Positions 21,669-60,028 of a DNA stretch of 64,000 bases are shown here, in pieces. The notes beneath the pieces are model-generated. The model made no database searches. It was given only the letters and a program-made list of their open reading frames with translations, and was not told the DNA's origin. The stretch lies in assembly GCA_022749755.1 (NCBI GenBank), contig CM040451.1, positions 5,408,871 to 5,472,870 of the forward strand, given 5' to 3'. The DNA comes from Azadirachta indica. Lineage: Eukaryota > Streptophyta > Magnoliopsida > Sapindales > Meliaceae. Both the position numbers and the translations under genes were made by a program. Numbering within the stretch: position 1 is the first letter of the stretch; every line of letters starts with the position of its first letter.

Positions 21669-21718
<50 letters not shown>

Positions 21719-33230: not shown

Positions 33231-33284
33231 GGCTGCAAATATTATTACTTAGATTAAGCTGAAACTGAATAGCCGTTTGGAAGC

Positions 33285-33292: not shown

Positions 33293-33299
33293 CTAGAAT

Positions 33300-36352: not shown

Positions 36353-36357
36353 AGTAT

Positions 36358-37828: not shown

Positions 37829-37989
37829 AGTATATATATTTTGTTCAATGTACGTACAATTTAACTAATGATTTTGGATCAAAATATGAGATTCACTCTA
37901 TTATTTCAATTTTTTGTCTAGTGCAAGTGGAAAATGATTTTCTTCAGTTGATTGCTTGAATCCAACATCATATAATTATATTAGATGAG

Positions 37990-39480
37990 TTTTTTTTTTT
38001 TTGGCTAAAAACATAGCTAAATTTAGAGACTATAATCATTATATATCCAAGAAAAGATTAGAGGAAGTTGCACAACCAACATGCACATACATTGCTAAGG
38101 CAACAACAAAGACCAATTTCATTACTACCAAAAACTTTCCTAGTGGAGGAAAGGATAATGACCGATTTATAACTCTTATTTCAGAAATGGTGCCATAATT
38201 TTAGTTAAAAGTATTGATTTTAGTTGTTGCTTTGTTTTATTGAATTTCAAATTAACGGATTGATTTTAGTTGTTGACTTGTTTTATTGAATTTTTTTTGT
38301 TTTATTTGATGAAATTGGACACCTATTGTTATCTTTAATTTTGAAGGATTTTTTTCGTTATTGTCTTAGTCTAATAGATCTCTCAATCAGGATGTAATGA
38401 ATATATTTGGAAATTACTTGTTGTTTTTTTTTCTTTCTTTTTTTTTTGTTTCCTAATATATTTTTTTCAAAATAATAGAATAATTGAAATCAATTAGTTT
38501 GAATTGAATGGATTGATGCATGAAAGTGATAAATGGTTCACTCAAAATATATTTAAGGTCTATAAACTAAACTTATTTGCAATCTAATTTGATAGTCTAA
38601 CTGTAAAAAATTTAGTAAATGGGGTAAAATTGTTTATAAAAATTGATTAACAGGGTTGTTGTCATTCAAATATTCCTTAAAAATAGGATTATTTGGTTAT
38701 GTATTAATTGTTTCACGTGATTTAGAATTTTTTTAAAAATTTTGATTGATTTTACTTTGTTTTTGTCATTCTAGATCAACAAAAACCTAATGGCACCTAA
38801 GTTGCAAAGAATGCAAGGTGAAAATGAGCAATCACAAGATTATGATGTTGACAAATTACGTATATAATGTAGATTGTCATGTGCATTTAACTTTTGCTTA
38901 TATGTGTTTTTAATTAACCAAAATTTGGTTTTCCAATATTTCAAGGAGCAATTATCCGAATTAAACTATATGCTTGGAAAATGGAGATGGCTTGGGAAGA
39001 AAATGCAGAAATTTTCAAACAAATAGATAAGTTTTTGAAGAAGAATATATAAAGGAAAGGAAGAAGAAAATGTAGGGGATTTTTTTTTTCTTTCATGTTT
39101 TACGTTTCTATAGTATAAAATTTATATTAATCACAAGGCTAGCTATCTCTTTCTTTATGTGCTTAACTCTTGTCTTAAAGCACAAGGAAACAAAAAAAAA
39201 AAAAAACTCCAAGATAAGTTGAATAGCAAGCTACTAGAGAGAATTTTTATAGATAAAGATGACTTTAAATCATTTATAATAAGATAACTTGAAAGCTTTT
39301 AGATCATTGTTTTTTCTTAGTCATGCTTCTAAAAGTGAGCATCAATTTGTTGATATGTTTTTATAATATGACTTTCTTAATAATTTTTAATTTTTGTGAC
39401 AGGTTGCAGCCCGAAATGCTGCAATGGCTGCCGATTCATAATCCTCTAAATTAGAGGCATACAGCCTCCAATTTAACTAT
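37990..39480 (+). pseudogene. Unidentified gene remnant with exon-like pieces
   Basis: Exon-like segments are separated by intron-like T-rich DNA: 38001-38198 (RDYNHYISKKRLEEVAQPTCTYIAK..), about 38776-38860 (QQKPNGT.., with a stop in frame), about 38945-39050 (MAWEENAEIFKQIDKFLKKN then stop) and about 39405-39441 after a CAG (VAARNAAMAADS then stop). The last piece resembles 4243-4287 near the left of the window. I recognise no domain. It could be a captured host gene within a transposon or a decayed gene. Reading frames between pieces are not shown to join. Confidence 0.3.
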
Positions 39481-39889
39481 TGATTTTAGAGTGGTATATA
39501 TAATTAAAAATTATGAGAACTAAAAGAATCTAGTTATGAGGCTTTTCAAAGTGTTGAAAAGACGGTTGATTCAGAATCTTCTAACTCATATTGTAATTTT
39601 TTTTTCGTTTCTTTCTTTATTTAGTCCAATAATAGTTAGTAGAATAATTATCCTTAATTTTATAAATAGAATATTTAATTCTTAATCTTATATATAAGGA
39701 TTAGAGTGTGGATAGAATTTCCTCCTTATGAGGATAGACATCATCCGTATTGGGCATGACAATTCGAGCAGCGCTATATGCAAATCAATTAAAACTTCCG
39801 ATAGATTTCTAACATAATATTAGTAGTTTGTACTTGTAACATGTAATACTTTAAAAAAAAAATTACAAATAAAATATCAAATTTCGTAA

Positions 39890-40055
39890 TTTGAGTTCAA
39901 TAAAAAATCATTTTAAAGGTGAAGTCTCACACTCTTGGTGGGAGTATCCCATATATAGTGGGAAGAGCCTCGCATTCAATTGGGTTCGAACTCATAGCCT
40001 CCTTTAGGGTATATTTTCTGATCATCTAAGCTAAGCTTAGGTGCTGCATGCATAA
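39890..40055 (-). mobile_element. tRNA-derived SINE-like element
   Basis: On the minus strand a box-A-like TAGCTTAGATGATC (40033-40020) is followed about 25 bases later by a box-B-like GAGTTCGAACCCAA (39994-39981), with the conserved GTTCGA core. A CTCTTCCCACTATATATGGGATACTC tail region and A/T-rich 3' end follow. This is the standard layout of a plant SINE with an internal pol III promoter. The 5' end is near 40055. Target duplications were not resolved. Confidence 0.58.
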
Positions 40056-40059
40056 ATAT

Positions 40060-41476
40060 ATTGAACCTTAGCATTTATATATGCATAAATATATTCAACA
40101 CTTCAACATTGGCTATAATTTCGCTAAATTTATGTCAAATTTTGGTTACTCTTGCATAGCTATGAGATTAGTTTAGGTAGAACAAAATTAAGTAATCTTC
40201 TTTTTGCATAAATTTCATGTATTTATTGAAGTAATAAATTGCATATACTTATTAAAGTAATAATACAGATTTTTTCTTCACCCTAATTTTTGAAAAGGAA
40301 AATTCCTGATATCCTTGCAAATTTGAGCAAATGTCCCATTACCTATTACGGTTTGAAAATTATCCTATAAGATTTATCTGTTAAATGAAATAATGGTAAA
40401 TTTTATTCTTTAGAAGTTTTTACCATAATACCCTCGAACAATTAATTTAATTTCAATATTTTTATCTATTAATACTATTCTCTTTTATAATTTATAATAA
40501 TTAATATATTTTTTTATTCATAATAACATATAATTTAAAATGACCTAGAGGTAGGCCGGGTCACCTTAAAAAAAGTCTTTCGCTGAATATAAAGTGTTAA
40601 GGGGGGTGAGTGCGGTAGCTGAATCAAGTAATTAATATATTATTTTTATTAATAATAAAAAGTTTAGTATTAACACAATCTATTAAATTGTAAATTAACA
40701 AAGCAATCCATTAACTCTAATAAACAAATTAACATTATTTTCTTCATCAAGAAGCACAACCATAAGAAATACTTTTACTCAACCAAACAAAAAACTTAAA
40801 CCCCAAATCAAATTAAAATCTTAAACACAGTAAATCTTTCTTTTCTTTGGAAATACTCAACAAAATAAAAAACTCGAACCCAAAATAACTTGATGCTAAT
40901 GGGTGTTGGTGGAGTCGAATCAGGTGGGTGAAGGCGGGGGGGGAGATGGTCGGTGGTGGGTAGAGGCGCAGGAGATGGCGGCAATGAAAGCTTATGATGA
41001 TGGGATTAGTTGGGTTACATTTTTATTAGTTTATAGCAAATAAATTTGGTCTTTTTTATTTAAATTATTTTTCGTTTATGATTTAAAATATATTTTTTAA
41101 TTTTATTTGTAATGGTGGGGCACAGTCAACCTTGACTGTGGCGACTCATAGGAGAAAGTGTTGTGTAAGGGGTTTTAACACATATCTCTCTTGAGTTTTG
41201 GCCTTTTAACACCTACAGAGATTGTTTTACTTAATTAACACTTGCCTCCCCTAGGGACATCCATTGATGTTAGCCACTATTAATTTGAGGGGTATTATAA
41301 CCATTTCCCTTGTAAAGTTTTGATTTCAATTAGGAAGCTTTAGTTTATATATACTGACGACTGAAGTTAAAAAAAATTGATATAGATTGATAAATAATTT
41401 TTATTCTTACTTGAATTTTTTGCATAAGTAGCAGATAATGATCGAGGGAATGAATCTTTCTTTGACGTTAGCCTCC
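40060..41476. other. Transposon-like debris, no gene seen
   Basis: A GC-rich G-run block lies at 40905-40990 (GGCGGGGGGGGAGATGG). A short palindrome AGTCAACCTTGACT lies near 41126. A CTTGCCTCCCCTAGG strip near 41242 resembles CTTACCTCCCCTAAGG near 60475, so the two may be ends of one element family. No coding region. Confidence 0.4.
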
Positions 41477-41662
41477 TTATCTCGGTTCCTCCTTTGATTC
41501 TTCCTGGTTGGCCTCCATCTCTATTGTTGCTTCTTCAGATAACATTGCTTGTGGTTTCCCAAAAGCTATAATAGAGAAAATAATAAGACATATCAGCACA
41601 CAAAGAAAACAAAATTTCCCAAGTAAAAAGAGCTTAAAACCTTGAACAGAATGCCTTTGCAT
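41477..41662 (-). pseudogene. Two-exon fragment of an unknown gene
   Basis: An open frame spans what looks like a short intron: MQRHSVQ, donor-like AG|GTTTTAAG, a T-rich stretch, acceptor TTCTCTATTATAG, then FGKPQAMLSEEATIEMEANQEESKEEPR and a stop. The acidic tail is credible as a C-terminal exon. No family is recognised and no further exons are seen, so it may be a captured fragment. Confidence 0.25.
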
Positions 41663-42062
41663 AGATATTTTCTTATGTGTGTCTATGTGCTTGGTGTTAT
41701 ATATTATGTATGTTTATACTTCTACTCTCAGTTCTATCATGAATAGTCACTTTGGTTAATGCATATATTTTTTGGTTTGTAGGTCTCGTTCCAGGAGAAT
41801 TATTGAAAATATTAGTAGTCAGTTCAAGATCCAAATAGAACTAGGCTCTTACAAGTCTTTTATTTATTTCTTACACTTTTATTGCAAAATGATGGGATAT
41901 TGGCATGTTTTATCATGTGTGCATGATACATATATACGTATTACTGCAATTCCATTTCTAGAAAAAAAACACAAATTAGTGTTCTATTATCATCCTTGTT
42001 GCCTTCATATTTTACTAATTAAACACTTTTGGCTACTTTGTGATTGATATTTAAAAAATTTC

Positions 42063-42095
<33 letters not shown>

Positions 42096-42331
42096 ACATT
42101 TCTTACTGAACATTTTAAATTAAAGAGTGCTCAGTACATTGATCAAATACTAGAGGTGTACATAGCTTTACTTACATCCATAATCCTTTTGCTATTAGAA
42201 ACATTGTGAAATTATAGTATACTTTTCAATGAGTGATTACTAGGTATTATTTTTGTTATGGCCTAGATCTCATGGTTTACTACTACAAAATAATTAAAAG
42301 AGTACATTAAATAGAATGCAGTTTTCATCAC
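41663..42331. other. Spacer left of the MCM6/virus junction
   Basis: AT-rich, with a long (AT)n microsatellite at 42063-42096. The 91-codon plus-strand frame 41772-42047 has no recognised domain. Nothing else is supported. Confidence 0.45.
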
Positions 42332-42750
42332 CAGCCTCTCTGAATAGAAGAATATAAGAGCATTAACTGATCCCTGATGTCCATCCGATATAATTCATCA
42401 ATGCAACTAATGCCATTGTCAGCAAGCATCAGGGCACAGGCTTGGCAATAAACCACCCATATTTGTAACTAAACCTAAGCAGGCAAGAATAATATGCTCA
42501 AAGGTACATGGAAATTAAAGAACCAAAAAAATGCAAAGGGAAAGCACATATCAGAATACCGGGTGCTCTTCTCTTAATGTCTTTTTAAATTTCTGAATCT
42601 TTCAATCTTCATACAGGTCTCTTTTATTCTCTTCTTGATTATTATTTTCGTGAACTTTTATGACCTCACACAACTATAACAAACCTCATGCACTTTTTAC
42701 ATTAATTGTGAAAGTGCATACTATGAATGCTAAAGTAAAATAAAGAAAAC
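42332..42750 (-). pseudogene. MCM6: MCM6 pseudogene, fragment 3
   Basis: Near-identical to about 29318-29736, that is the Walker B exon (ALMLADNGISCIDEL..MDIRDQ on the minus strand) plus the following intronic sequence. It begins abruptly at about 42332 and ends at AAAGAAAACC (about 42750), where caulimovirid sequence starts without a gap. It differs from copy 1 at a few positions (for example a 3-base loss in CTTTT(CC)AAATTTC near 42585). This is a third, 420-bp MCM6-derived piece, marking the left host-virus junction. Confidence 0.8.
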
Positions 42751-42769
42751 CTTGCATTCCTTCTTAAAT

Positions 42770-44800
42770 TTAATTCTTTTAGACAACCTAGACCACCAAC
42801 TAGTTATTCAAATTTTCAGACCGCCAGATCATCATTTTCCATTCCTAACACCTCTAGAGTTCAAACTACTAAAATAGAAGATCTAAATACTCAAAGTTCC
42901 GTTCAATATACTACTCCAATAGCCGAACCAGTGCATAGGCCGGAATCTCCAACATTTTCTGATTTTCAAACTATTAACACAATAATTAATGAAAATTGGG
43001 AAATAGACAAAAAATTCCTTAGACAAGACTTTAGCTCACCATTAAACAAGGAAAAGAAAACGTGGTTTCTAGTCAATTTTAACTTAGAGTAACAAGCCAT
43101 TATTAGGACAGCTTGGTATGAAGACATTAATAGAATGAAGACAAATATTTCATTTTTCACGTGGTTTGAAATGTACTCCTTTAATAATAAAATAATGTAC
43201 TCATTTAGAAAATCGAATCTAGACATCCACACTAGCCATCTTAGAAAATGGGAAACAAAAAATCATGGCATTATTCAATCTGTATATCCACCCTTAGAAT
43301 CTCTCCAACTTAATATTTCAGCTAGTCGTATTCCAGCATCACCGTTCAAATTAGCTAATGATAGATCAAACACTGAACCTTCCACTTTAGGAGACATTAA
43401 AAAACTCTATGAACAGAATAATTACCAAAGTCAAATATTGCACACTATTTCTAAACAAGTTAGTCATATAGAAGATAAAATAGACCAAACTACCCCTTGT
43501 TCTAGTTTTCCTTCTAGTGTGACCTCACCTCTATTTAAACCTCAACCATTACCGTAAAAAAACAAAGAAATTACTCCTTTTCCCAAAATTGACCTTTTAG
43601 ATCAAATTAATAAAAAATTATCGAATTTACCAGGACCTTTCAACGTTAATATCATAAATGAAACTTTAGATAGTCAAATCCAGAGTCAAGATGAGGATAG
43701 TGAACCCTTAGAAATTAATAGGTTACAAAGAAAAACTAGACAACCCAATAACTGGAAAAATGCATTAACTAGAAATTATTATCCTAGACCTACTCCACTA
43801 GATATTCAATATGAAGAACGCGCTAAGTATATTACTACTCAATACACCGGTGAATCTATCTATGAATGGAACATAGATGGTAAATCCAAATATGAAATTA
43901 TGAATGTACTCCAAGAAATAGGAATGGCTGCAATAGCTTATAAAGCTGTAAAAGACACTGACCATCAAGCCGCTAGATTAATAGTAGCAGGATTTACAAG
44001 ATCCCTTAAGTATTGGTGGGATAATAGTCTTAGTACAACTACTCAACAAAGTATACTCAATCACGTAGAACAACTCATAATAGAAGATGATCAAGGATTT
44101 CAAGAGATCAAAGAAACTCAAAATGCTGTAGAAGTACTCATTCATATGATAGCTATGCATTTCATAGGCAATCCTCAGGAAGAACTTCAGAGTTCAAAAT
44201 TAGTGTTTACAAATCTTAGGTGTCCATCCTTAGGTGACTTTAGATAGTATAATGATGTTTTTGTTACACATATATTCCAACGACAGGACTGTAATGCCTC
44301 TTTTTGGAAAGAAAGATTTATTGCAAGATTACCCAAATTCTTTTAAAATAGAGTACTTAAAAAATTAGTAGAAATTACCGGAGGAAGTTCAATCCCTTGG
44401 GACACTATTACTTATGGTCAAGTTTTTGCATTTGTTAAGAAAGAAAGCTTAGCCTTATGTCAAGAACAAAAAGATAAGAAAAATAATGAGAAATATTAAT
44501 TTACACAAACCGTAGGAAACTTTTGTACTCAATATGGTTATGACAATCTCACAGCCCCATCCCGTAGGAAACCACATAAGCCCAAAACTATTACTTATCC
44601 TCCAAAACATAATAAAAAAGTCAAGTTTAATGAACCTTATTACAAAAAGAATAAAAAACGTAGTAAGCCCAAACATAGTAAAAAACCCATAGTTTGTTGG
44701 AAATGTAAGAAATCAGGCCATACGTCCACTAACTGTAGAACAAGAAATAGGATTAATGAAATATTCAAAAATGATGAGGATCTTAGACAAAAATTTAGTT
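42770..44800 (+). pseudogene. Coat-protein region of copy A, broken
   Basis: Open pieces at 43135-43557 and 43900-44247 encode the capsid domain; the latter includes AGFTRSLKYWWDNSL, matching the GFTG.L..WWDN motif of caulimovirid and related plant capsid proteins. The zinc knuckle CWKCKKSGHTSTNC (44695-44736) binds nucleic acid. Upstream is a Pro/Ser-rich linker. In-frame stops lie at 43090 (shared with copy B), 43555 and 44245, with further disruption near 44344. Confidence 0.85.
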
Positions 44801-45399
44801 AACTTCTCCTTAGCGAAAATTCTAATAGTCAATCAGATTCTTTTGAAGCTATTGAAGAAATAGATAATTTTAGTGACACAAGTAGTATTTAAGACTGTAG
44901 TTGTAGCGAAGGAATATGCCACTGTCAATCACTAAATATGATATCAAGTAGAAAACAGGATAAACAATTTCTTTTAGATATTATAGATAAAATAGAAGAT
45001 CCCGATGTCAAAAGAGAATACTTGCTTAAACTCAAAGATATCCTTACTCAAGAACAACACCTTAGTACTCCAGAATCATTTAGTCTAAATAAAATTTTTG
45101 ATAAATATTCTATTCAAAGTCTTTTTAAACAAGTTACTATAGGAGAATTACAATAAGAAATTAAATTACTAAAAAAAACAATTTAAGGAATTAGAACAAA
45201 AAGTCCAAGAGCAACAATTACAACAATTACAGAATAATATTAGAATAGAGTTAATAGAAAGCTCCACTAGAAAACAAAAAGAAATTATTCAACCCCACAA
45301 TTCTATAGAATTAGATTCCAATAATAACTCTGGTGACACGTTTATTCAACTTGTTAGTAAGATTAATTTTCAAAAATAATACATCCACATATCACTCCA

Positions 45400-47371
45400 T
45401 ATAGGAAACGGTTTCCACTTAGAAACCACAGCATTAGTTGACTCTGGTGCTCATCAAAATTGTATTAGAGAAGGAATAATACCAACACAATTTTATAAAA
45501 AAACTAGTAAAAAATTACATGGTGCAAATGGTTCAAGTCTTAACGTTAGGTATAAATTATCAAATGCAAGAATTTGTAATAATAATTATTGTTTTAAGAA
45601 TAATTTTACTTTAGTCAAAAATTTTAGCCAAAACATCATTTTAGGTACTCCATTTTTGACCTAGATATATCCCTTTACTGTAGATGACAAAGGAATTCAT
45701 ACTCACGTATTAGGCAAACAAATTACCTTTCATTTCTTGTCTTCTATTAGTCAAAAAGAGATCAATTTACTCTAAAAAAATTCTATTACCCGACAACTTA
45801 ATATTATATCCAACAAAATGAATCATATCCAATCCTTGCAGAAAGAAATCCAGTATGACAAAGTAAAAAAATAATTAGGGAATCCTACTATTCAAGCACA
45901 AGTTCAACAACTTCAATCATTTTTAGAAAAAAAAATATGCTCGGACCTACCCAATGCTTTTTGGGAAAGAAAAAAGCATATAGTCCAACTTCCATATGAA
46001 AAACATTTTAATGAAAAACAAATTCCTACAAAAACCCGTCCTATTCAAATGAATCATGAACTTTTAGAACATTGTAAAAAAGAAATTAATGACCTACTCA
46101 ATAAAGGATTTATTAGGAAATCTAAGTTTCCTTGGAGTTGTCCAGCTTTTTATGTTAACAAAAATTCCGAAATAGAAAGAGTAGTCCCTATAATAGTTAT
46201 TAATTACAAACCTTTAAATAAAGTCCTGCAATGAATTAGATATCTAATTCCTAATAAAAAAGATTTACTCAAAAGATTATACAATAGTGTAATATTTTCA
46301 AAATTCGATATGAAGAGTGGATTTTGGCAAGTCCAAATAGACGAAAAGGATAGGTACAAAACAACCTTTATGATACCTTTTGGCCATTATGAATGGAACG
46401 TAATGCCATTTGGACTCAAAAATGCCCCTTCGGAATTTCAAAATATTATGAATGACATATTCAACCCTTTCACACATTTTTCTATTGTGTACATTGATGA
46501 TGTCCTTATCTTTTCCAACTCAATAGAACAATATTTTAAACATTTAAATTTATTTTTACATGTGGTCAAAAAGAATGGTCTAGTAGTGTCGGCCACCAAA
46601 ATGAAATTATTCCAAACCAAAATTAGATTTTTAGGCCATGAAATATATAAAGGTACTATTCAACCTATTAATAGATCAATGGAATTTGCCTCGAAATTTC
46701 CAGATAAAATTAGGGAAAAAACTCAATTACAAAGATTTTTAGGATCACTTAATTATGTAGCAGACTTTTTCTCAAACCTTAAACAACTTTGTGAACCATT
46801 GTATCAAAAATTAAGAAAAAGTCCTCCTAATTGGACTAAAGAACATACTAGAGTAATTAAGCTTCTTAAACAAAAGGTTAAGGTTTTACCATGTTTGTCT
46901 ATTCCAGATCCTAGTACGACCCTTATAGTAGAAACCGATGCTTCAGACATAGGTTATAACGGAATACTCAAACAAAAAACTAATAGAAGTGATAAAAAAT
47001 TAATAGTTAGATTCCATTCAGGTGTTTGGATAGGAGCCCAAAGAAATTATTCAACAATTAAAAAGGAAATTTTATCAATTGTTTTATGTATTATGAAATT
47101 CCAATATGACTTATTCAATAAAAGCTTTTTATTACGTATTGACTGCAAATCTGCAAAAGAGGTTTTAGAAAAAGATGTTAAAAATTTGGTTTCTAAGCAA
47201 ATATTTGCAAGATGGCAGGCAATTTTGTCCAACTTTAATTTTCAAATTTCCTATATAAAGAGAGAATCTAATTCTTTACCAGACTATGTTACGAGAGAGT
47301 TTTTACAAGAAAAGATAGAGAGTGAAATTCAAACACAGAGTGAAAACCCAAAATGTCCAGCAAAAGTATGA
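45400..47371 (+). pseudogene. Protease-RT-RNase H region of copy A
   Basis: The protease has the ALVDSGA active-site motif (Asp codon 45440-45442). The RT starts in the frame 46049-46234, which ends in a TGA replacing a Trp codon, and continues in the same frame from 46310 to 47371 as the longest open piece in the virus (353 codons). That piece has YIDD at residues 61-64 (46490-46501) and RNase H residues: Asp210 in ETDAS, Glu in KKEILSIV, Asp in RIDCKSAKEV and Asp in LPDYVTR. The protease is separated from the RT by stops. These domains would reverse-transcribe the pregenomic RNA in the cytoplasm. The Met at 46310 lies inside the RT domain, so the open piece is not a natural protein. Confidence 0.92.
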
Positions 47372-48578
47372 AACCGTCCGATTATGCAATGACTACTTAA
47401 ATCTCTATCCCTAGTTACGGTAATATTCCAGTTGCATCAACAACAGGTATGATTTCTTCAACTCAAGAGTATCATTCTCTCTCCTATACTCAAGCTATTA
47501 AATCCAGGTCTTCTACCCAACCTGAGTCATCTACCCAGAAAAATATTTTGTCTTCTACACAAGTTCTTATTCAAAAATCCCAACATAAAACAAAATCCCA
47601 AGCACAGCATATCCAAGTTACCCCTATGATAAACCAATCCAATTAAAAGACTTTTATGCCCTTACCAATAGATTATTCCATCCTGATTTTCAATTTATTA
47701 CAGATACTCCTCTCAAAAATAGAAAATTTTACGAATTTATCCTAATAGATACAAAATCTGTAGAAATCAACTATCACCATAACCCAAAAGACTTTAACCA
47801 AATCGCCTACTTCACCTGTAAAATTAAGAAGATCCTATCACCTAGAGAATTTCCTACAACCTCGATATACTCAACTGTATCCTTTTCCGTACCATACAAA
47901 CCAGAAGGATGCAATTATATTGATTATCAAAAGGCATGGTTTAATATGTTTTTCCTTAGATCTTTTGACCATTCCTGATTTATTCAATTTGACCCAAATT
48001 GTGCAAACCTCACACCATCCTGGTTTCAAGAATGGTGGTTCTTTTTAGGACCCGAACCATTAATTTACCCACAACAAGTTATCCAAGAATCCTTTCCCTA
48101 GTTCAATAAAAATATCCCAAAAACTAATCAACCATTTTTTGTTGAACTCAATTTCCATATTAAATTCTCAATACCATGGATCCTTCCATGGAATTTTACA
48201 GTAGAATGATTTTATCCAGAATATAATCTATCTTTATTAAGAGAATTCAAAATCAAATGGTGGGACAAATATGACTTAAACAAAATCACTCCTTCAGCAC
48301 TTATTCAATGGCTAAAGTCAGAAAAGACGATTGTAAAAGCTGTCAAAGAAGTCTGTTCTCCGCCTCCAAAAAGGACTTCTACTCCTTCTGACAAGGCCAG
48401 CTCAAGCATCCTTTCGAAGAATAAAAGACAATACTATGCCAAAATGTTCGATGAAATAATCAAGAAAATGGAAGAAAAAGAAAATAATGACACCCAAGAA
48501 TCTTCAACAAGATTTACTCAACCACTGACAGATGACCCATATGGCGGGCCATTCTCTCAAGACCCATTTGATCTGTAA
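47353..48578 (+). pseudogene. ORF2 of copy A, unknown function, broken
   Basis: The ATG at 47353 overlaps the ORF1 stop (47369-47371) by 19 bases, a compact viral layout that suggests reinitiation or leaky scanning. The N-terminal part is Ser/Thr/Gln-rich (STQ repeats, 47449-47646). A later part has an aromatic-rich core (FQEWWFFLGPEP, about 48030-48050) and a charged tail (KKMEEKE) ending DPYGGPFSQDPFDL. There is a stop 15 codons after the ATG (47398-47400) and a 1-base loss near 47622, both shared with copy B, plus further stops. Florendoviruses often carry a downstream ORF of unknown role; I recognise no domain. Confidence 0.7.
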
Positions 48579-48599: not shown

Positions 48600-48830
48600 C
48601 ACATTTAGCACGTGGCCGACAGCAAGGACAATTATTCAAGAATATTCAAGGACAATTTTGCAAGACTTATTTATCATGTGACCGACATCAAGCATTCTCA
48701 AGGACAACTATTCAAGACAAAGACATGTGACCGACAATAAGAATCTTTCTTTTCTTTTAGTTAATTTTGTTGTATTCAATAATTGTATTATTCAATATTG
48801 TAAGAGTTTTTCAATTTTACCTATAAATTA
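48600..48830 (+). promoter_or_regulatory. Viral promoter region with three GTG[G/A]CCGACA repeats
   Basis: The pregenomic-RNA promoter is expected here, between ORF2 and the primer-binding site. Three repeats are visible: CACGTGGCCGACA (48609-48621), CATGTGACCGACA (48675-48687) and CATGTGACCGACA (48724-48736), interleaved with CAAGGACAATTATTCAAG-like copies. The first joins an ABRE-like ACGTGGC with a DRE/CRT core GCCGAC. The TATA box CTATAAATTAG is at 48821-48831, so transcription would start at about 48850-48860. This is the only complete copy of the region in the window. Confidence 0.7.
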
Positions 48831-48916
48831 GAAAATCGTTTCCTTACCCGAGGAGGCGAACAAAAGAGAGAAAACACTTAGTGCAAAACTCTCTTTTGTA
48901 ATATTCTCCCACGATC

Positions 48917-48922
48917 AATAAA
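48917..48922 (+). terminator. Viral polyadenylation signal AATAAA
   Basis: AATAAA follows the TATA box by about 95 bases. In pararetroviruses the signal lies just downstream of the transcription start and is used only after the RNA has gone round the genome. That fits this spacing. The same signal recurs in fragment D near 59710. Confidence 0.7.
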
Positions 48923-49135
48923 ATATTTCCATTTTCAAAAACTATTTGTTCTTATTTTGATCATACAATTTCCAATTTAATATTCCAATTCTTAAACATG
49001 TAATTTCAAATTTTATTTTCCAAAATTAATCCTTATTTCAAATCATCAACAATTTTCCAACTTATTATTTTCAAATTAATTCACAATCATTTTACTCATC
49101 AACTCTCTAGTCTCGATCTCTTCCTGAACTAATTT

Positions 49136-49149
49136 GGTATCAGAGCCAA
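49136..49149 (+). other. tRNA-Met primer-binding site
   Basis: TGGTATCAGAGCCA is complementary to the 3' end of plant initiator tRNA-Met. Caulimovirids use it to prime minus-strand DNA synthesis, and by convention it is position 1 of the genome. It marks the A/B boundary and is repeated in fragment D at about 59926-59939. Confidence 0.95.
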
Positions 49150-49404
49150 GTGTTTTCGAAATTGGTGAAGTTTTTAATAAAAACAATTGTTAGATAAATA
49201 GTTTAAAATACAGAACATCCTAAGTATAGAGAGGGAGCAATGTAAAGTTGTTTGTAGGTTTGGCAAGTCAGGTCGCGAGTGGCAGTAAGATCCTACGAGG
49301 AAGTGAGGTTATAAGTCCAGCGTTTGATCCGAAGGTGTTCCCCTAGCTCTCTTTGTATTTAATATTTATGTGTTTTAAATTATTTGTTTGCAATAGTTTT
49401 AATT

Positions 49405-50121: not shown

Positions 50122-52260
50122 GATGAAATTAGTATTTCAGAAAACTGGAAAATAGATCAGCCACAAGTCCCTAGGAATTTAGCTCAAAAAGAAATTCCTC
50201 AAGTACTAGAAACCAACGACAGTAAAATCCTTCTTAGATTTAATTCTTTTAGACAACCTAAACCACCAACTAGTTATTCAGATTTTCAGGCCGCCAGATC
50301 ATCATTTTCCATTCCTAACACCTCTAGAGTTCAAACTACTAAAATCGAAGATTTAGATACTCAAAGTTCCGTTCAACATACTACTCCAATAGCCGAACCA
50401 GTGCATAGGCCGGAATCTCCAACATTTTCTGATTTTCAAACTATTAACACAATAATTAATAAAAATTGGGAAATAGACAAAAATTTCCTTAGACAAGACT
50501 TTAGCTCACCATTAAATAAGGAAAAGAAAACGTGGTTTTTAGCCAATTTTGACTTAGAGTAACAAGCCATTATTAGGACAGCTTGGTATGAAGACATGAA
50601 TAGGATGAAGACAAATATTCCATTTTTCACGTGGTTTGAAATGTACTCCTTTAATAATAAAATAATATACCCTTTTAGAAAATCAAATCTAGACGTCCAC
50701 ACTAGCCATCTTAGAAAATGAAAAACAAAAAATCATGGCATTATTCAATCCGTACATCCACCCTTAGAATCTCTCCAACTTAATATTTCAGGTAGTCGTA
50801 TTCCAGCATCACCGTTCAAATTAGCTGATGATAGATCAAACACTGAACCTTCCACTTTAGGAGACATTAGAAAATTCTATGAACAGAATAATTATCAAAG
50901 TCAAATATTGCACACTGTTTCTAAACAAGTTAGTTATGTAGAAGATAAAATAGACCAAACTACCCTTAGTTCTAGTTTTCCTTTTAGTGTGACCTCACCT
51001 CTATTCAAACCTCAACCATTACCGCAAAAAGACAAAGAGATTACTCCTTTTCCCAAAATTGACCTTTTAGATCAAATTAATAAAAAATTATCGACTTTAC
51101 CAGAACCTTCCAACGCTAATACCATAAATGAAACTTTAAATAGTCAAACTCAGAATCAAGATGAGGATAGTGAACCTTTAGAAATTAATAGGTTACAAAG
51201 AAAAACTAGACAACCCAATAATTGGAAAAATGCATTAACTAGAAATTATTATCCTACACTTACTCCACCAGATATTCAATACGAAGAACGCGCTAAGTAT
51301 GTTACTACTCAACACCCCGGTGAAGCTATCTATGAATGGAATATAGATGGTAGATCCGAATATGAAATTGTGAATGTACTCCAAGAAATAGGAATGGCTG
51401 CAATAGCTTATAAAGCTGTAAAAGACACTGACCATCAAGCCGCTAAATTAATAGTAGCAGGATTTACAAGATCCCTTAGGTATTGGTGGGATAATAGTCT
51501 TAATACAACTACTCAACAAAGTATACTCAATCACGTAGAACAACTCATAATAGAAGATGATCAAGGATTTCAAGAGATCAAAGAAACTCAAAATGCTGTA
51601 AAAGTACTCATTCATACGATAGCTATGCATTTCATAGGCAATCCTCAGGAAGAACTTCAGAGTTCAAAATTAGTGCTTATAAATCTTAGGTCTCTAACTT
51701 TAGGTGACTTTAGATGGTATAAAGATGCTTTTGTTACACATATATTCCAACGACAAGACTGTAATGCCCTTTTCGTGGAAAGAAAGATTTATTGCAGGAT
51801 TACCTAAATTCTTCTCAAATAGAGTACTCAAAAAATTAGTAGAAATTACCGGAGGAAGTTCAATCCCTTGAGACACTATTATTTATAGTCAACCTATTGC
51901 ATTCGTTAAGAAAGAAGGCTTAACCTTATGTCAAGAACAAAAAGATAAGAAAAATAGTGAGAAATATTCTTTTAAACAAACCGTAGGAAACTTTTGCGCT
52001 CAATATGATTATGACAATCTCACAGCCCCATCCCGTAGGAAACCACATAAGCCCAAAATTGTTACTTATCCTCCAAAACATAATAAAAAAGCCCAGTTTA
52101 ATGAACCTTATTACAAAAAAAATAAAAAACGTAATAAGCCCAAACATAGTAAAAAACCCATAGTTTGTTGGACATGTAAGAAATCAGGCCATACGTCCAC
52201 TAACTGTAGAACAAGAAATAGGATTAATGAAATATTCAAAGATGATGAGGATTTTAGACA
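50122..52260 (+). pseudogene. Capsid region of copy B, broken
   Basis: The open piece 50908-51807 (299 codons) carries a Pro-rich linker and the capsid domain with AGFTRSLRYWWDNSL. The zinc knuckle CWTCKKSGHTSTNC lies at 52166-52207 in a shifted frame after the frameshift near 51770. Stops at 50560 (also in copy A) and 50719 lie upstream. Arms of the palindrome start inside this region, at about 51496. Confidence 0.85.
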
Positions 52261-52859
52261 AAAATTTAGCCAACTTCTTCTTAACGAAAATTCTAATAGT
52301 CAATCAAATTCTTCTGAAGCTATTCAAGAAATAGATAATTCTAGTGACACAAGTAGTATTCAAGACTGTAGTTGTAGCGAAGGAATATGCCACTGTCAAT
52401 CACTAAATATGATGTTAAGTAGAAAATAGGATAAACAATTTTTTTTACATATTATAGATAAAATAGAAGATCCCGATGTCAAAAGAGAATACTTGCTTAA
52501 ACTCAAAGATATCCTTACTCAAGAACAACACCTTAGTACTCCAGAATCATTTAGTCTTAATAAAATTTTTGATAAATATCCTACTCAAAGTCTTTTTAAA
52601 CAAGTTATTACAGGAGAATTACAACAAGAAGTTAAATTACTTAAAAAACAACTTAAGGAATTAGAACAAAAAGTCCAAGAGCAACAATTACAATAATTAC
52701 AAAATAATATTAGAATAGAGTTATAGAGTTACTAGAAAGCTCCACTAGAAGACAAAAAGAAATTATTCAACCCTACAATTCTATAGAATTAGATTTCAAT
52801 AATAACCCTGATGACACGTTTATTCAACTTGTTAGCAAGATTAATTTTCACAAATGGTA

Positions 52860-54848
52860 CATCCACATATCACTCCATATAGGAAACAGTTTCTACTTAG
52901 AAACCACAGCATTAGTTGACTCCGGTGCTGATCAAAATTGTATTAGAGAAGGAATAATACCAACACAATTTTATGAAAAAACTAGTGAAAAATTACATGG
53001 TGCAAATGGTTCAAGTTTTAACGTTAGGTATAAATTATCAAATGCAAGAATTTGTAATAATAATTATTGTTTTAAAAATAATTTTACTTTAGTCAAAAAT
53101 TTTAGCCAAAACATCATTTTAGGTACTCCATTTTTGACCCAGATATACCCCTTTACTGTAGATGACAAAGGAATCCATACTCACGTGTTAGGCAAACAAT
53201 TTACCTTTTATTTCTTATCTCCTATTAATCAAAAAGAGATCAATTTACTCCAAGAAAATTCTATTAGCCGACAACTTAATATTATGTCCAACAAGAGAAA
53301 TCATATTTAATCCTTGAAGAAAGAAATCCAATATGACAAAGTAGAAAAACAATTAGGGAATCCTACTATTCAAGCATGAGTTCAACAACTTCAATCATTT
53401 TGAGAAAAAGAAATATGCTCAGACCTACCCAATACTTTTTGGGAAAGAAAAAAGCATATAGTCCAACTTCTATATGAAAAACACTTTAATGAAAAACAAA
53501 TTCCCACAAAAGCCTGTCCTATTCAAATGAATCATGAACTTTTAGAACATTGTAAAAAAGAAATTAATGACCTACTCAATAAAGGACTTATTAGGAAATT
53601 CAAGTCTCCTTGGAGTTGTCTAGCTTTTTATGTTAACAAAAATTCCGAAATAGAAAGAGAAGTCCCTAGATTAGTTATTAATTATAAACCTTTAAATAAA
53701 GTCCTGCAATGGATTAGATATCCAATTCCTAATAAAAAAGATTTACTCAAAAGATTATACAATAGTGTAATATTTTCAAAATGCAATATGAAGAGTGGAT
53801 TTTGACAAGTTCAAATAGATGAAAAGGATAGGTACAAAACAGCCTTTACGGTACCTTTTGGCCATTACGAGTGGAACGTAATGCCATTTGGACTCAATAA
53901 TGCCCCTTCGGAATTCCAAAATATTATAAATGACATATTCAACCCTTTCACACATTTTTCTATTGTGTACATTGATGATGTCCTTATCTTTTCCAACTCA
54001 ATAGAACAACATTTTAAACATTTAAATTTATTTTACATGTGGTCAAAAAGAATGGTCTAGTAGTGTCGGCTACCAAAATGAAATTATTCCAAATCAAGAT
54101 TAGATTTTTAGGCCATGAAATATATAAAGGTACTATTCAACCTATTAATAGATCAATCGAATCTACCTCGAAATATTCCGATGAAATTAGGAAAAAAACT
54201 CAATTACAAAGATTTTTAGAATCACTTAATTATGTAGCAGACTTTTTCCCAAACCTTAGACAACTTTGTAAACCATTGTATCAAAGATTAAGGAAAAGTC
54301 CTCCTAATTGGACTGAAGAACATACTAGAGTAATTAAGCTTCTTAAACAAAAGCTTAAAGTTTTACCATGTTTGTCTATTCCACATCCTAATACGACCCT
54401 TATAGTAGAAACCGATGCTTCAGACATAGGTTATGGCGGAATACTCAAATAAAAAACTAATAGAAGTGATAAAGAATTAATAGTTAGATTCCATTCAGGT
54501 GTTTGGATAGGAGCTCAAAGAAATTATTCAACAATTAAAAAGAAAATTTTATCAATTGTTTTATGTATTATGAAATTCCAATATGACTTATTCAATAAAA
54601 GCTTTTTATTACGTATTGACTGCAAATCTGCAAAAGAGGTTTTAGAAAAAGATGTTAAAAATTTGGTTTCTAAGCAAATATTTGCAAGATGGCAGACAAT
54701 TTTGTCCAACTTTAATTTTCAAATTTCCTATATAAAGAGAGAATCTAATTCTTTACCAGACTATGTTACGAGAGAGTTTTTACAAGAAAAGATAGAGAGT
54801 GAAATTCAAACACAGAGTGAAAACCCAAAATGTCCAGCAAAAGTATGA
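52860..54848 (+). pseudogene. Protease-RT-RNase H of copy B, broken
   Basis: The protease DSGAD motif is intact (Asp codon 52918-52920). The RT is split: the 53527-53805 frame ends at a TGA replacing Trp in GFWQ. YIDD is at 53968-53979. A 1-base loss near 54033 shifts the frame to 54039-54452, which holds the ETDAS RNase H Asp. A stop follows, and the last piece is 54570-54848. The RNase H glutamate is replaced by Lys (KKKILSIV) near 54540. A TGA near 53401 is shared with copy C. Confidence 0.88.
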
Positions 54849-55480
54849 AACCGTCCGATTATGCAATGACTACTTAAATCTCTATCCCTAGTTACGGTAA
54901 TATTCCAGTTGCATCAACAACAGGTATGATTTCTTCAACTCAAGAGTATCATTCTCTCTCCTATACTCAAGCTATTAAATCCGGGTCTTCTACCCAACCT
55001 GAGTCATCTACCCAGAAAAATATTTTGTCTTCTACACAAGTTCTTATTCAAAAATCCCAACATAAAACAAAATCCCAAGCACAGCATATCCAAGTTACCC
55101 TTATGATAAACCAATCCAATTAAAAGACTTTTATGCCCTTACCAATAGATTATTCCATCCTGATTTTCAATTTATTACAGATACTCCTCTCAAAAATAGA
55201 AAATTTTACGAATTTATCCTAATAGATACAAAATCTGTAGAAATCAACTATCACCATAACCCAAAAGACTTTAATCAAATCGCCTACTCCACCTGTAAAA
55301 TTAAGAAGATCCTATCACTTAGAGAATTTCCTGCAACCTCTATATACTCAACTGTATCCTTTTCTGTACCATACAAACCAGAATGATGCAATTATATTGA
55401 TTATCAAAAGGCATGGTTTAATATGTTTTTTTCTTAGATCTTTTGACCATTCCTGGTTTATTTAATTTGACCCAAATTAA
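54830..55480 (+). pseudogene. ORF2 of copy B, 5' part only
   Basis: Nearly identical to the start of ORF2 in copy A, including the early TAA and the 1-base loss. It is cut off at about 55480, after the YQKAWFNMFF region, where the inverted copy begins. Confidence 0.7.
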
Positions 55481-55632
55481 ATTGATAACTTGTTTATTTA
55501 ATACCCGAACCAGGGAAAGGATTCTTGGATAACTTATTGTGGGTAAATTGATGGTTCGCGTCCTAAAAAGAACCACCATTCTTGAAACCAGGATGGTGTG
55601 AGGTTTGTACGATTTGAGTCAAATTAGATAAA

Positions 55633-56064
55633 TCAGGAATGGTCAAAAGATATAAGGAAAAACATATTAAACCATGCCTTTTGATAATCAATATAATTGT
55701 ATCCTTCTGGTTTGTATGGTACGGAAAAGGATACAGTTGAGTATATGGAGGTTACAGGAAATTTTCTAGGTGATAGGATCTTCTTAATTTTGCAGGTGGA
55801 GTAGGCGATTTGGTTAAAGTCTTTTGGATTATGGTGATGGTTGATTTCTACAGATTTTGTATCTACTAGGATAAATTCGTAAAATCTTCTAATTTTGAGC
55901 GGGGTATCTGTAATAAATTGAAAATCATGGTGGAATAATCTATTGGTAAGGGCGCAAAGGTCTTTTAATTGGATTGGTTTATCATAAGGGGTAACTTGGA
56001 TATGCTGTGCTTGGGATTTTGTTTTATATTGGGATTTTTGAATAGGAACTTGTGTAGAAGACAA
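55633..56064 (-). pseudogene. ORF2 fragment of copy C
   Basis: A 143-codon open piece covering the STQ region and the following FYEFILVDTKSVEINHHH segment to the YQKAWFNMFF region. It lacks the 1-base loss seen in copies A and B, and the early stop of A and B is a Gln codon here. So in this stretch copy C is closer to the original frame. Confidence 0.7.
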
Positions 56065-56240
56065 AATATTTTTCTGGGTAGATGACTCAGGTTGGGTAGA
56101 AGACCCGGATTTAATAGATTGAGTATAGGAGAGAGGAGGATACTCTTAAGTTGAAGAAATCATATCTGTTGTTGATGTAACTGGAATATTACTATAACTA
56201 GGGATGGAGATTTGAGTAGTCATTGCATAATCGGACGGTT

Positions 56241-57563
56241 TCATACTTTTTCTGGACATTTTGGGTTTTCACTCTGTGTTTGAATTTCACTCTCTATTTT
56301 TCCTTGTAAGAACTCTCTCGTAAGATAGTCTGGTAAAGAATTGGATTTTCCCTTTATATAGGAAATTTGAAAATCAAAGTTGGACAAAATTGTCTGCCAT
56401 CTTCCAAATATTTGCTTGGAAACCAAATTTTTAACATCTTTTTCTAAGACCTCTTTTGTAGATTTACAGTCAATACGTAATAAAAAGCTTTTATTAAATA
56501 AGTTATCTTGGAATTTCATAATACATAAAACAATTGATAAAATTTCCTTTTTAATTGTTGAATAATTTCTCTAGGCTCCTATCCAAACACCTGAATGGAA
56601 TCTAACTATTAATTCTTTATCACTTCTATTAGTTTTTTGTTTGAGTATTTCGCCATAACCTATGTCTGAGGCATCGGTTTCTACTATAAGGGTCGCATTA
56701 GGATCTGGAGTAGACAAACATGGTAAAACCTTAACCTTTTGTTTAAAAAGCTTAATTATTCTAGTATGTTCTTCAGTCCAATTAGGAGGACTTTTCCTTA
56801 ATCTTTGATACAATGGTTCACAAAGTTGTCTAAGGTTTGGGAAAAAGTCTGCTACCTAATTAAGTGATCCTAAAAATCTTTGCAATTGAGTTTTTTTCCT
56901 AATTTCATCGGGAAATTTCGAGGTAGATTCGATTGATCTATTAATAGGTTGAATAGTACCTTTATATATTTCATGGCCTAAAAATCTAATCTTGATTTGG
57001 AATAATTTCATTTTGGTAGCCGACACTACTAGACCATTCTTTTTGATCACATGTAAAAATAAATTTAAATGTTTAAAATGTTGTTCTATTGAGTTGGAAA
57101 AGATAAGGACATTATCAATGTACACAATAGAAAAATGTGTGAAAGGGTTGAATATGTCATTCATAATATTTTGGAATTCCGAAGGGGCATTTTTGAGTCC
57201 AAATGGCATTACGTTCTATTTGTAATGGCCAAAAGGTATCGTAAAGTCTATTTTGTATCTATCTTTTTCATCTATTTGGACTTGCCAAAATCCACTGTTC
57301 ATATCGAATTTTGAAAATATTACACTATTGTATAATCTTTTGAGTAAATCTTTTTTATTAGGAATTGGATATCTAATCCATTGCAAGACTTTATGTAAAG
57401 GTTTATAATTAATAACTAATCTAGGGACTTCTCTTTCTATTTCGGAATTTTTGTTAACATAAAAAGCTAGACAACTCCAAAGAGACTTGAATTTCCTAAT
57501 AAGTCCTTTATTGAGTAGGTCATTAATTTCTTTTTTACAATGTTCTAAAAGTTCATGATTCAT
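56241..57563 (-). pseudogene. RT-RNase H region of copy C, broken
   Basis: Open pieces at 57563-57216 (RT N-terminal part), 57209-56856 (palm), 56813-56571 (ETDAS RNase H Asp) and 56519-56241. The catalytic motif YIDD is YIDN (57122-57111), so the active-site Asp is lost even where the frame is open. A stop lies near 57212, and others follow. Confidence 0.88.
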
Positions 57564-59591
57564 TTGAATAGGACAGGCTTTTGTAGGAATTTGTTTTTCA
57601 TTAAAGTGTTTTTCATATGGAAGTTGAACTATATGCTTTTTTCTTTCCCAAAAAGTATTGGGTAAGTCCGAGCATATTTCTTTTTCTCAAAATGATTGAA
57701 GTTGTTGAACTCGTGCTTGAATAATAGGATTCCCTAATTGTTTTTCTACTTTGTCATATTGGATTTCTTTCTGCAAGGATTGGATATGATTTCTCTTGTT
57801 GGATATAATATTAAGTTGTCGGGTAATAGAATTTTCTTGGAGTAAATTGATCTGTTTTTGATTAATAGGAGATAAGAAATGAAAGGTAATTTATTTGCCT
57901 AACATGTGAGTATGAATTCCTTTGTCATCTACAGTAAAAAGGTATATTTAAGTCAAAAATTGAGTACCTAAAATGATGTTTTGGCTAAAATTTTTGACTA
58001 AAGTAAAATTATTCTTAAAACAATAATTATTATTACAAATTCTTGTATTTGATAATTTATACCTAACGTTAAGACTTGAACCATTTGCACAATATAATTT
58101 TTCACTAGTTTTTTCATAAAATTGTGTTGGTATTATTCCTTTTCTAATACAATTTTGATCAGCACCGGAGTCAACTAATGCTGTGGTTTCTAAGTGGAAA
58201 CTGTTTCCTATATGGAGTGATATGTGGATGTACCATTTGTGAAAATTAATCTTGCTAACAAGTTGAATAAACGTGTCATCAGGGTTATTATTAGAATCTA
58301 ATTCTATAGAATTGTAGGGTTGAATAATTTCTTTTTGTTTTCCAGTGGAGCTTTCTAGTAACTCTATAACTCTATTCTAATATTATTCTGTAATTGTTGT
58401 AATTGTTGCTCTTGGACTTTTTGTTCTAATTCCTTAAGTTGTTTTTTAAGTAATTTAACTTCTTGTTATAATTCTCCTGTAGTAACTTGTTTAAAAAGAC
58501 TTTGAGTAGGATATTTATCGAAAATTTTATTAAGACTAAATGATTCTGGAGTACTAAGGTGTTGTTCTTGAGTAAGGATATCTTTGAGTTTAAGCAAGTA
58601 TTCTCTTTTGACATCGGGATCTTCTATTTTATCTATAATATCTAAAAAAAATTGTTTATCCTGTTTTCTACTTGACATCATATTTAGTGATTGACAGTGG
58701 CATATTCCTTCGCTACAACTACAGTCTTGAATACTACTTGTGTCACTAGAATTATCTATTTCTTGAATAGCTTCAGAAAAATCTGATTGACCATTAGAAT
58801 TTTCGCTAAGGAGAAGTTGGCTAAATTTTTGTCTAAGATCCTCATCATCTTTAAATATTTCATTAATCCTATTTCTTGTTCTACAGTTAGTGGACGTATG
58901 GCCTGGTTTCTTACATGTCCAACAAACTATGAGTTTTTTACTATGTTTAGGCTTACTACGTTTTTTATTCTTTTTGTAATAAGGTTCATTAAACTGGGCC
59001 TTTTTATTATGATTTGGAGGATAAGTAATAGTTTTGGGCTTATGTCATTTCCTACGGGATGGGGCTGTGAGATTGTCATAATCATATTGAACACAAAAGT
59101 TTCCTACGGTTTGTTTAAAAGAATATTTCTCACTATTTTTCTTATTTTTTTGTTCTTGACATAAGGTTAAGCCTTCTTTCTTAACGAATGCAAAAAGTTG
59201 ACCATAAGTAATAGTGTCCCAAGGAATTGAACTTCCTCTGGTAATTTCTACTAATTTTTTGAGTACTCTATTTGAGAAGAATTTGGGTAATCTTGCAATA
59301 AATCTTTCTTTCCAAAAAAAGGCGTTACAATCCTGTCGTTAGAATATGTGTAACAAAAACATCTTTATACCATCTAAAGTCACCTAAAGTTGAACACCTA
59401 AGATTTGTAAGCACTAATTTTGAACTCTGAAGTTCTTCCTGAGGATTGCTTATGAAATGCATAGCTATCGTACGAATGAGTACTTCTATAGCATTTTGAG
59501 TTTCTTTGATCTCTTGGAATCCTTGATCATCTTCTATTATGAATTGTTTTACGTGATTGAGTATACTTTGTTGAGTAGTTGTACTAAGACT
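57564..59591 (-). pseudogene. Protease and capsid region of copy C, broken
   Basis: Includes the protease DSGAD motif (about 58165 on the minus strand), an acidic region with YCHCQS-like Cys, the zinc knuckle CWTCKKPGHTSTNC (58924-58883) and capsid pieces (59606-59325 frame). The knuckle has Pro in place of Ser. The TGA in the segment before the RT (near 57688) is shared with copy B. Confidence 0.8.
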
Positions 59592-60028
59592 GTAAGAGTT
59601 ATTCAATTATAACTATAAATTAGAGAATCGTTTCCTCACTCAAGGAGGCAAACAAAAGAGAGAAAACACTTAGTGCAAAACTCCCTTTTGTAATATTCTC
59701 CCACGATCAATAAAATATTTCCATTTTCAAAAACTATTTATTTTTATTTTGATCATACAATTTCCAATTTAATATTCCAATTCTTAAACATGTAACTTCA
59801 AATTTTATTTTCCAAAATTAATCTTTATTTCAAATCATCAACAATTTTCCAACTTATTATTTTCAAATTAATTCACAATCATTTTACTCATCAATTCTCT
59901 AGTCCCGATCTCTTCTTAGGCTAATTTGGTATCAGAGCCAAGTGTTTTCGAAATTAGTGAAGTTTTAATAAAAACAATTGTTAGATAAATAGTTTAAAAT
60001 ACATAACATCCTAAATATAGAGAGAGAA
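59592..60028 (+). promoter_or_regulatory. Endogenous caulimovirid fragment D (core promoter, leader)
   Basis: Plus-strand piece equal to 48797-49230 of copy A: TATA box (CTATAAATTAG, about 59616-59626), AATAAA signal (about 59710), leader and primer-binding site TGGTATCAGAGCCA (about 59926-59939). It lacks the upstream GTG[G/A]CCGACA repeats. It ends near 60028 with a short repeat of its own leader (AAGTTTTAATAAAAACAATT). Any transcript would run rightwards, antisense to small gene B copy 3 and MCM6 copy 2. Confidence 0.8.

What the first reader, a model, noticed from the sequence alone, without database searches (positions are those of the whole stretch)
51496..59591. Giant viral palindrome: ~4-kb inverted copies with a ~130-bp loop
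Copy B (51496-55480, plus) and copy C (59591-55611, minus) are inverted copies of the same capsid-to-ORF2 viral sequence, separated by only about 130 bases. A promoter-like region (TATA at 48821) lies upstream of B on the same strand. Any transcript through both arms would fold into ~4 kb of double-stranded RNA covering capsid, protease, RT and RNase H. Hairpin loci of this type feed Dicer-like enzymes and give abundant siRNAs. The locus could thus be a natural source of RNA silencing against related caulimovirids, a rarely documented role for an endogenous virus. The role is inference; the palindrome is visible.
Basis: partly seen in the sequence, partly recalled or inferred. Interest (0 to 1): 0.88.

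Follow-up and report, generated by a model that had tools for sequence, protein, structure and literature searches.

The report
Viral hairpin between viral start/stop signals
In what is most likely a plant chromosome, two 4-kb copies of the same broken virus sequence lie back to back between two copies of the virus's predicted RNA start-and-stop block, so RNA read through them would likely fold into a long hairpin that could feed the plant's gene silencing, a kind of locus already reported from tomato and soybean.

Summary
The palindrome is real as sequence. B (51496-55477, +) and C (59591-55612, -) are 95.2% identical inverted copies 134 bases apart, in a rearranged endogenous caulimovirid array (a direct tandem of about 1.7 units of 7.47 kb, plus the inverted copy). 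The arms differ throughout and the centre holds 28 bases without a viral match, so a fold-back assembly artefact is unlikely. The only other full copy of the centre found, on C5, ends at a 100-N gap and is probably a misplaced haplotig.

Promoter, B, loop, C and poly(A) signal thus lie in order on one strand over about 10.9 kb; a transcript would be a hairpin.

Divergence gives no sign that the arms are conserved, and no RNA could be examined. Hairpin caulimovirid loci giving 22-nt siRNAs are already published. Two capped genome searches show tail-to-tail pairs at nine other places, and viral ends cluster at the tRNA primer-binding site, which points to joining of replication DNA; this window's own centre is not at that site. 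New member of a known kind, with unusually complete anatomy.

The parts
42758..48104 (+). Copy A, first unit of the direct tandem; viral sequence continues from it into B
   Evidence: 95.0% to B (offset about 7,470), 94.0% to C; frames cut by stops
48799..49236 (+). Viral promoter block upstream of B: TATAAA 48822, AATAAA 48917, primer-binding-site word TGGTATCAGAGC 49135
   Evidence: repeated at 59591-60027 (94.5%)
50228..55478 (+). Copy B; its part 51496-55477 is the left arm of the palindrome
   Evidence: DUF7746 51319-51558, zinc knuckle 52163-52210 (18.1 bits, below cut-off 20.8), protease 52873-53145, RNase H 54462-54713
55479..55506 (.). 28 bases at the centre without viral match
   Evidence: longest exact match elsewhere in the window 14 bases
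55507..59591 (-). Copy C, inverted; 55612-59591 is the right arm, 55507-55611 an unpaired extension absent from B
   Evidence: 95.2% to B, 94.0% to A; RT match in C below Pfam cut-off (25.8 vs 29.6 bits)
59591..60027 (+). Second promoter block directly after the C arm: TATAAA 59614, AATAAA 59709, primer-site word 59927
42333..42752 (+). Host fragment touching the left viral border, a copy of the start of the flanking repeat
   Evidence: 96.0% to 29323-29743
29215..42328 (+). Host segment (holds an MCM exon) repeated downstream of the virus from 61919 on
   Evidence: 97.1% over the first 4 kb, 89-90% with gaps after that

Best explanation
The locus is a rearranged endogenous caulimovirid array in which a viral promoter block, a 4-kb arm, a short loop, the inverted arm and a second promoter/poly(A) block lie in that order on one strand, and it likely works as a natural hairpin-RNA gene: a Pol II transcript would start near 48850, run through B and C and end near 59730, and its double-stranded stem would be cut by Dicer-like enzymes into siRNAs against related viral copies. 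Shown by sequence: order, orientation, motif positions, pairing, broken frames, relative divergence. Inferred: transcription, skipping of the first and use of the second poly(A) signal (as in caulimovirid pregenomic RNA, recalled), dicing, trans-silencing. Origin, inferred: viral DNAs of one lineage were joined end to end by host break repair at integration, with the asymmetric centre made then or by a later deletion. It would work as a side effect of integration; nothing here shows that selection keeps it.
For: Arms pair with 3,791 Watson-Crick and 83 G-U pairs against 105 mismatches, longest perfect run 132 bp, 1,518 perfectly paired 21-nt windows. The centre folds far below shuffles. The same block with the same 95-base TATA-to-AATAAA spacing and the exact primer-site word stands on + at both ends; that exact word occurs nowhere else in the window. 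Exact 22-mers shared with the arms: 41% of copy A (740 of 1,784) and 3-25% in 22 other loci, over a 1.8-kb piece. Precedents in tomato and soybean (passages). B and C are sisters among 28 sequences, so they fit one founding event at this locus.
Against: No RNA or small-RNA data. TATAAA and AATAAA are common words in this AT-rich DNA (21 and 41 on + between 42 and 62 kb), so only the 94.5% block repeat gives the motifs weight. AATAAA also stands on + eight times in the B arm and five times in C, where transcripts could end early. Arm divergence is like that of A, no conservation. GC-to-AT changes exceed AT-to-GC ones in each copy (66/26, 46/15, 60/35), as in silenced DNA, though the CG/CHG/CHH split is not decisive.
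Confidence: 0.5

Rival explanations
1. Inert relic: the palindrome is only a scar of how viral DNA was joined and integrated; the locus is silenced, not transcribed through the centre, and gives at most the 24-nt siRNAs of any old copy.
For: Frames broken in A, B and C; arms diverge like A; GC-to-AT excess; tail-to-tail pairs recur elsewhere, as expected of an integration by-product.
Against: Promoter and poly(A) blocks keep their key words at both ends; long near-perfect inverted repeats of this family give siRNAs in tomato and soybean (passages).
Confidence: 0.42
2. The inverted arm arose after integration, by inverted duplication of B in the chromosome, not by joining of viral DNAs.
For: B and C share 10 derived changes against 3 (A+C) and 1 (A+B) of 1,801 sites, so B/C split after A, or came from one viral molecule.
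Against: C carries 105 viral bases that B lacks, so B would have had to lose them later; primer-site ends and tail-to-tail pairs at other loci fit joining at integration.
Confidence: 0.3
3. Assembly artefact: the palindrome does not exist in the plant.
For: The C5 twin of the locus breaks at a 100-N gap inside the C arm and continues as C6-like sequence, so the assembler had trouble here.
Against: Arms differ by about 5%; the centre has unique bases, not a repeat overlap; the window has no N; the centre also stands on the C5 contig.
Confidence: 0.04
4. A reservoir from which virus is released by recombination, as proposed for inverted banana streak virus copies.
For: Direct and inverted repeats of one viral unit are present.
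Against: Frames of all three copies are cut by stops and each copy has about 2% private change.
Confidence: 0.01

Closest known systems
Inverted-repeat endogenous caulimovirids ('TSAs') of tomato, Valli et al. 2023 (paper not held; known from passages of PMC10377300 and PMC12904150)
   Same: Rearranged endogenous caulimovirid in inverted-repeat form whose transcript would be a hairpin.
   Different: There 22-nt siRNAs and target cleavage are reported; here there are no RNA data. Here promoter and poly(A) blocks bracket the repeat; whether that holds in tomato I did not see.
Soybean inverted repeats from caulimovirid and TE sequence that feed DCL2 (reference 89 of PMC10377300, passage only)
   Same: Long inverted repeat with caulimovirid sequence.
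   Different: Soybean case has DCL2-dependent 22-nt small RNAs shown; host and virus differ.
Endogenous banana streak virus and petunia vein clearing virus loci (passages of PMC10377300)
   Same: [quoted passage not shown] head-to-tail tandem from promoter of one copy to poly(A) site of the next (petunia).
   Different: Those are recent and replication-competent; here all three copies have broken frames, and the promoter-to-poly(A) span holds an inverted copy.
Endogenous rice tungro bacilliform-like segments, Kunii et al. 2004 (PMC526188, passages)
   Same: Integration junctions concentrate in the intergenic region and at discontinuities of the viral DNA.
   Different: Here eight of nine loci read break at the primer-binding site to within about 10 bases; this window's palindrome centre does not.
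Endogenous florendoviruses, Geering et al. 2014 (PMC4241990, passages)
   Same: Caulimovirid without living virus in hand, flanked by (TA)n within 1 kb: an (AT)16 run at 42063-42095 lies 0.66 kb from the left border.
   Different: Genus not tested here.

Membership tests
Endogenous Caulimoviridae | RT with RNase H of caulimovirid type | tested here: met
   (RVT_1 111 bits, RNase H); best solved match 8r0s 'Enzymatic polyprotein', E 8e-84; best relatives named are plant-genome proteins, some 'Enzymatic polyprotein'
Endogenous Caulimoviridae | Retroviral-type aspartic protease | tested here: met
   RVP 37.4 bits (cut-off 20.7)
Endogenous Caulimoviridae | Zinc-knuckle capsid protein | tested here: inconclusive
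   zf-CCHC 18.1 bits, below cut-off 20.8; DUF7746 above cut-off
Endogenous Caulimoviridae | Movement protein | tested here: inconclusive
   two open pieces at 49363-49683 and 49852-50121 gave no Pfam match
Endogenous Caulimoviridae | tRNA-Met primer-binding site and circular genome of 7.1-9.8 kbp (size: abstract start of PMC7660458) | tested here: met
   TGGTATCAGAGC at 49135 and 59927; tandem unit 7,470 bases. That the word pairs with initiator tRNA-Met is recalled
Endogenous Caulimoviridae | No integrase | tested here: inconclusive
   none found in the viral open pieces scanned; not every frame was scanned
siRNA-producing inverted-repeat endogenous caulimovirid (tomato TSA type) | Caulimovirid copies in inverted-repeat form | tested here: met
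siRNA-producing inverted-repeat endogenous caulimovirid (tomato TSA type) | Transcription through the repeat | not testable with these tools
   only motifs and order: promoter block before B, poly(A) block after C
siRNA-producing inverted-repeat endogenous caulimovirid (tomato TSA type) | Abundant 22-nt siRNAs and cleavage of matching transcripts | not testable with these tools
   no small-RNA data held
Florendovirus | Place in an RT tree with named genera | not tested

The most novel reading that the evidence does not exclude
A complete natural hairpin-RNA gene made wholly of virus: the same promoter/poly(A)/primer-site block at both ends yields a terminally redundant, 'pregenomic' hairpin RNA of about 10.9 kb that silences its relatives in trans. 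It is one of about seven independent tail-to-tail viral inversions in this genome, made because reverse-transcription products are joined by their primer-site ends, so that integration chemistry itself writes heritable antiviral hairpins.
Probability: 0.2. Interest if true: 0.72.

Novelty: new member of a known kind. Interest (0 to 1): 0.42.

Why it matters
If transcribed, this locus gives a viral hairpin RNA with defined start and stop signals, so one can test whether inverted endogenous viruses act as heritable antiviral memory or are silent scars. The primer-site junctions at other loci suggest a general route, joining of replication DNA ends, by which such inversions arise without selection.

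Tried and rejected
Fold-back assembly artefact: disfavoured because the arms differ by about 5%. Homogenised arms: not seen; the near-identical tract is between the direct copies A and B (0.8% in alignment columns 3000-3500, against 6.2% for both A/C and B/C there), not between the palindrome arms. C5 copy as independent proof: not accepted, because it ends at a 100-N gap whose other side is near-identical to C6. Source of the 28 central bases: none found in the window. Primer-site origin of this window's own centre: not met, its ends lie at unit positions of about 5243 and 5347. Methylation by context: GC-to-AT transitions at CG 14 of 74 sites, CHG 14 of 113, CHH 144 of 1,043, pooled over three copies; too weak to decide. 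Host species: not identified, the matK family search did not complete. Genus of the virus: not tested.

Full report
Setting. The window is C12:5408871-5472870 of an unnamed 280.8-Mb genome in 21 contigs. A peroxidase and an MCM exon nearby, together with caulimovirid sequence whose named relatives are mostly plant-genome proteins (120 of 1,307 listed; a few carry bacterial or archaeal labels), make a plant most likely. The species was not identified.

What is there. Self-BLAST shows a viral array from 42758 to 60027. A (42758-48104) and B (50228-55478) are direct copies (95.0%), offset about 7,470, so A runs on into B as a tandem of about 1.7 units. C (55507-59591, minus) is inverted, 95.2% to B and 94.0% to A. 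The block 59591-60027 repeats 48799-49236 at 94.5% on +. Pfam finds DUF7746, protease, RT and RNase H; the zinc knuckle is below its cut-off. The best solved match of the RT/RNase H piece is 8r0s, 'Enzymatic polyprotein'. The frames of A, B and C are cut by stops.

The palindrome. The arms are 51496-55477 and 55612-59591: 3,791 Watson-Crick pairs, 83 G-U, 105 mismatches, longest perfect run 132 bp. The centre folds far better than 100 shuffles. It is asymmetric: C runs 105 bases beyond the end of B, and 28 bases without viral match lie between. That looks like non-homologous joining or a later central deletion (inference).

The transcription unit. TATAAA 48822, AATAAA 48917 and the primer-site word 49135 stand upstream of B; the same three stand at 59614, 59709 and 59927 after C, same strand, same 95-base spacing of the first two. 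The primer-site word occurs nowhere else in the window; TATAAA and AATAAA are common (21 and 41 on + between 42 and 62 kb). A has no such block before it: host sequence ends at 42752. In caulimovirids the poly(A) signal near the cap is skipped the first time and used the second (recalled). By that rule a transcript would run from about 48850 to about 59730 and hold both arms. AATAAA words inside the arms (eight in B, five in C, on +) could end it early. No RNA was seen.

Age and history. Of 1,801 gap-free sites of a 1.8-kb piece, polarised by nine other copies (25 variable sites ambiguous and dropped), A has 45 private changes, B 31 and C 31; B+C share 10, A+C 3, A+B 1. The tree has 28 sequences: A, B, C and 25 of 29 fetched loci (four dropped for covering under 1,200 bases; L013 is A itself, L012 and L014 are the C5 twins of B and A). 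In it A, B and C form one clade with B and C as sisters, and the inverted partners at C10 and at C12:6.31 Mb are each other's nearest relatives; it was midpoint-rooted and printed without support values. So each of these loci was probably founded by one viral lineage. At recalled plant rates of 0.7-1.3 x 10^-8 per site per year the B/C split would be 1.3-2.5 million years old, if the differences arose after integration. Over the full arms (3,971 sites) the private counts are A 114, B 73, C 114; B's lower count lies partly in a tract where A and B differ by 0.8% while A/C and B/C differ by 6.2% (columns 3000-3500), which suggests conversion between the direct copies. The palindrome arms are not kept more alike than A and B.

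Artefact? Fold-back artefacts give identical arms; these differ. The junction is unique sequence, and the window has no N. Among the 40 candidates scored, the full 491-bp centre stands at two places, here and at C5:18073597. The C5 copy matches window 11150-56691: five of six aligned stretches at 98.6-99.9%, one 1.4-kb stretch at 93.8% with gaps; C5 beyond 18118000 was not fetched. It stops at a 100-N gap inside the C arm, and across that gap C5 matches C6 at about 100% over 1.9 kb. I read C5 as misplaced alternative haplotypes; a recent duplication is not excluded. It is weak support.

How common? Neighbouring copies within 16 kb were classified from two searches, each capped at 40 scored candidates. 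Capsid-region query (41 matches, one half of a split copy dropped, 40 used): 6 tail-to-tail, 1 head-to-head, 2 direct. 3' query (38 places plus the reverse arm of this window and of its C5 twin, B itself left out, 40 used): 6, 2 and 1, of which two tail-to-tail pairs are this locus and C5. Apart from these two, tail-to-tail pairs lie at nine places: C10, C12:6.31 Mb, C9, C13, C8 (three) and C4 (two). The two C4 centres share one junction and are 91.8% alike, and the three C8 pairs have one spacing, so these are about six events, seven with this locus. Five of the nine were read: C10 and both C4 places are palindromes without spacer, C13 has a 2-kb spacer, and the C8 place is an inverted pair of 1.15-kb arms with a 2.9-kb spacer. 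With 3 head-to-head pairs, an excess of tail-to-tail is not proven. The C10 case is larger than this one: primer sites at 9253786 and about 9268768, centre near 9261290, hence two arms of about 7.5 kb; its interior was only sampled.

Where viral ends fall. Of 43 matches to 301 bp around the primer site (40 of 75 candidates scored), 19 have an end within 17 bases there; of 37 internal ends, 19 lie there (p 6e-14 if ends were uniform and independent, which duplicated loci are not). I read nine of those 19. Eight break at unit positions 6373-6388, the primer site being 6378: beyond the break five show no match to the unit, one only a 20-base match, two inverted viral sequence. The ninth (L070) is viral on both sides and merely diverged, so some of the unread ten may be too. 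The C10 centre sits on the primer site itself: one arm runs to 6392, the other starts at 6379; the C4 centres lie at 6368-6369 and 6335. Reverse transcription starts at this site, so these look like ends of replication DNA. Junctions at discontinuities of viral DNA are known from rice (PMC526188, passages). The centre in this window lies about 1 kb away from the site, so this origin is only partly supported here.

Literature. Passages seen: PMC10377300, PMC4241990, PMC9124383, PMC526188, PMC1899175, PMC12904150. Listings only. Valli et al. 2023 is not held. In those listings and passages I saw no caulimovirid palindrome bracketed by promoter and poly(A) blocks and none centred on the primer site; most subscription papers are not in that library.

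Verdict. Palindrome real as sequence; hairpin RNA likely but untested; antiviral role speculative; new member of a known kind.

Noticed in passing
C10:9253786-9268768 (L056, L065, L016, L017): A larger tail-to-tail viral palindrome, two arms of about 7.5 kb, centred on the tRNA primer-binding site.
   Followed up: partly
L065-L069, L071-L073: Viral DNA breaks at the primer-binding site at eight of nine loci read, as if linear replication DNA had been integrated.
   Followed up: partly
C4:15481051-15483751 and C4:17557551-17560201 (L057, L058): Two viral palindromes with the same centre, 91.8% alike over 2.7 kb, 2 Mb apart: one event later duplicated.
   Followed up: partly
C8:1256697, C8:1323237, C8:8827312: Three inverted viral pairs of one spacing (about 4.3 kb), so an inverted pair that was itself multiplied.
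   Followed up: no
C5:18072596-18072695 (L041 2596-2695): 100-N gap that joins C6-like to C12-like sequence; this part of C5 is probably a patch of misplaced haplotigs.
   Followed up: partly
A about 47000-47800, B about 54500-55280: Tract where the direct copies A and B are nearly identical while C is 6% away: likely gene conversion.
   Followed up: partly
29215-42328, 42333-42752, 61919 onward: Host repeats with an MCM exon flank the virus on both sides, and a 420-base copy of the repeat's start touches the left viral border; a third partial copy lies at 78-84 kb on the window scale.
   Followed up: partly
42063-42095: (AT)16 run 0.66 kb left of the viral border, as often seen beside endogenous caulimovirids (PMC4241990 passages).
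   Followed up: no
19558-20353, 18898-19521, 7342-7703, 21569-21903, 15276-15573: Imperfect palindromes of 300-800 bp (65-73% self-complementary) in the very AT-rich left part, perhaps fold-back elements.
   Followed up: no
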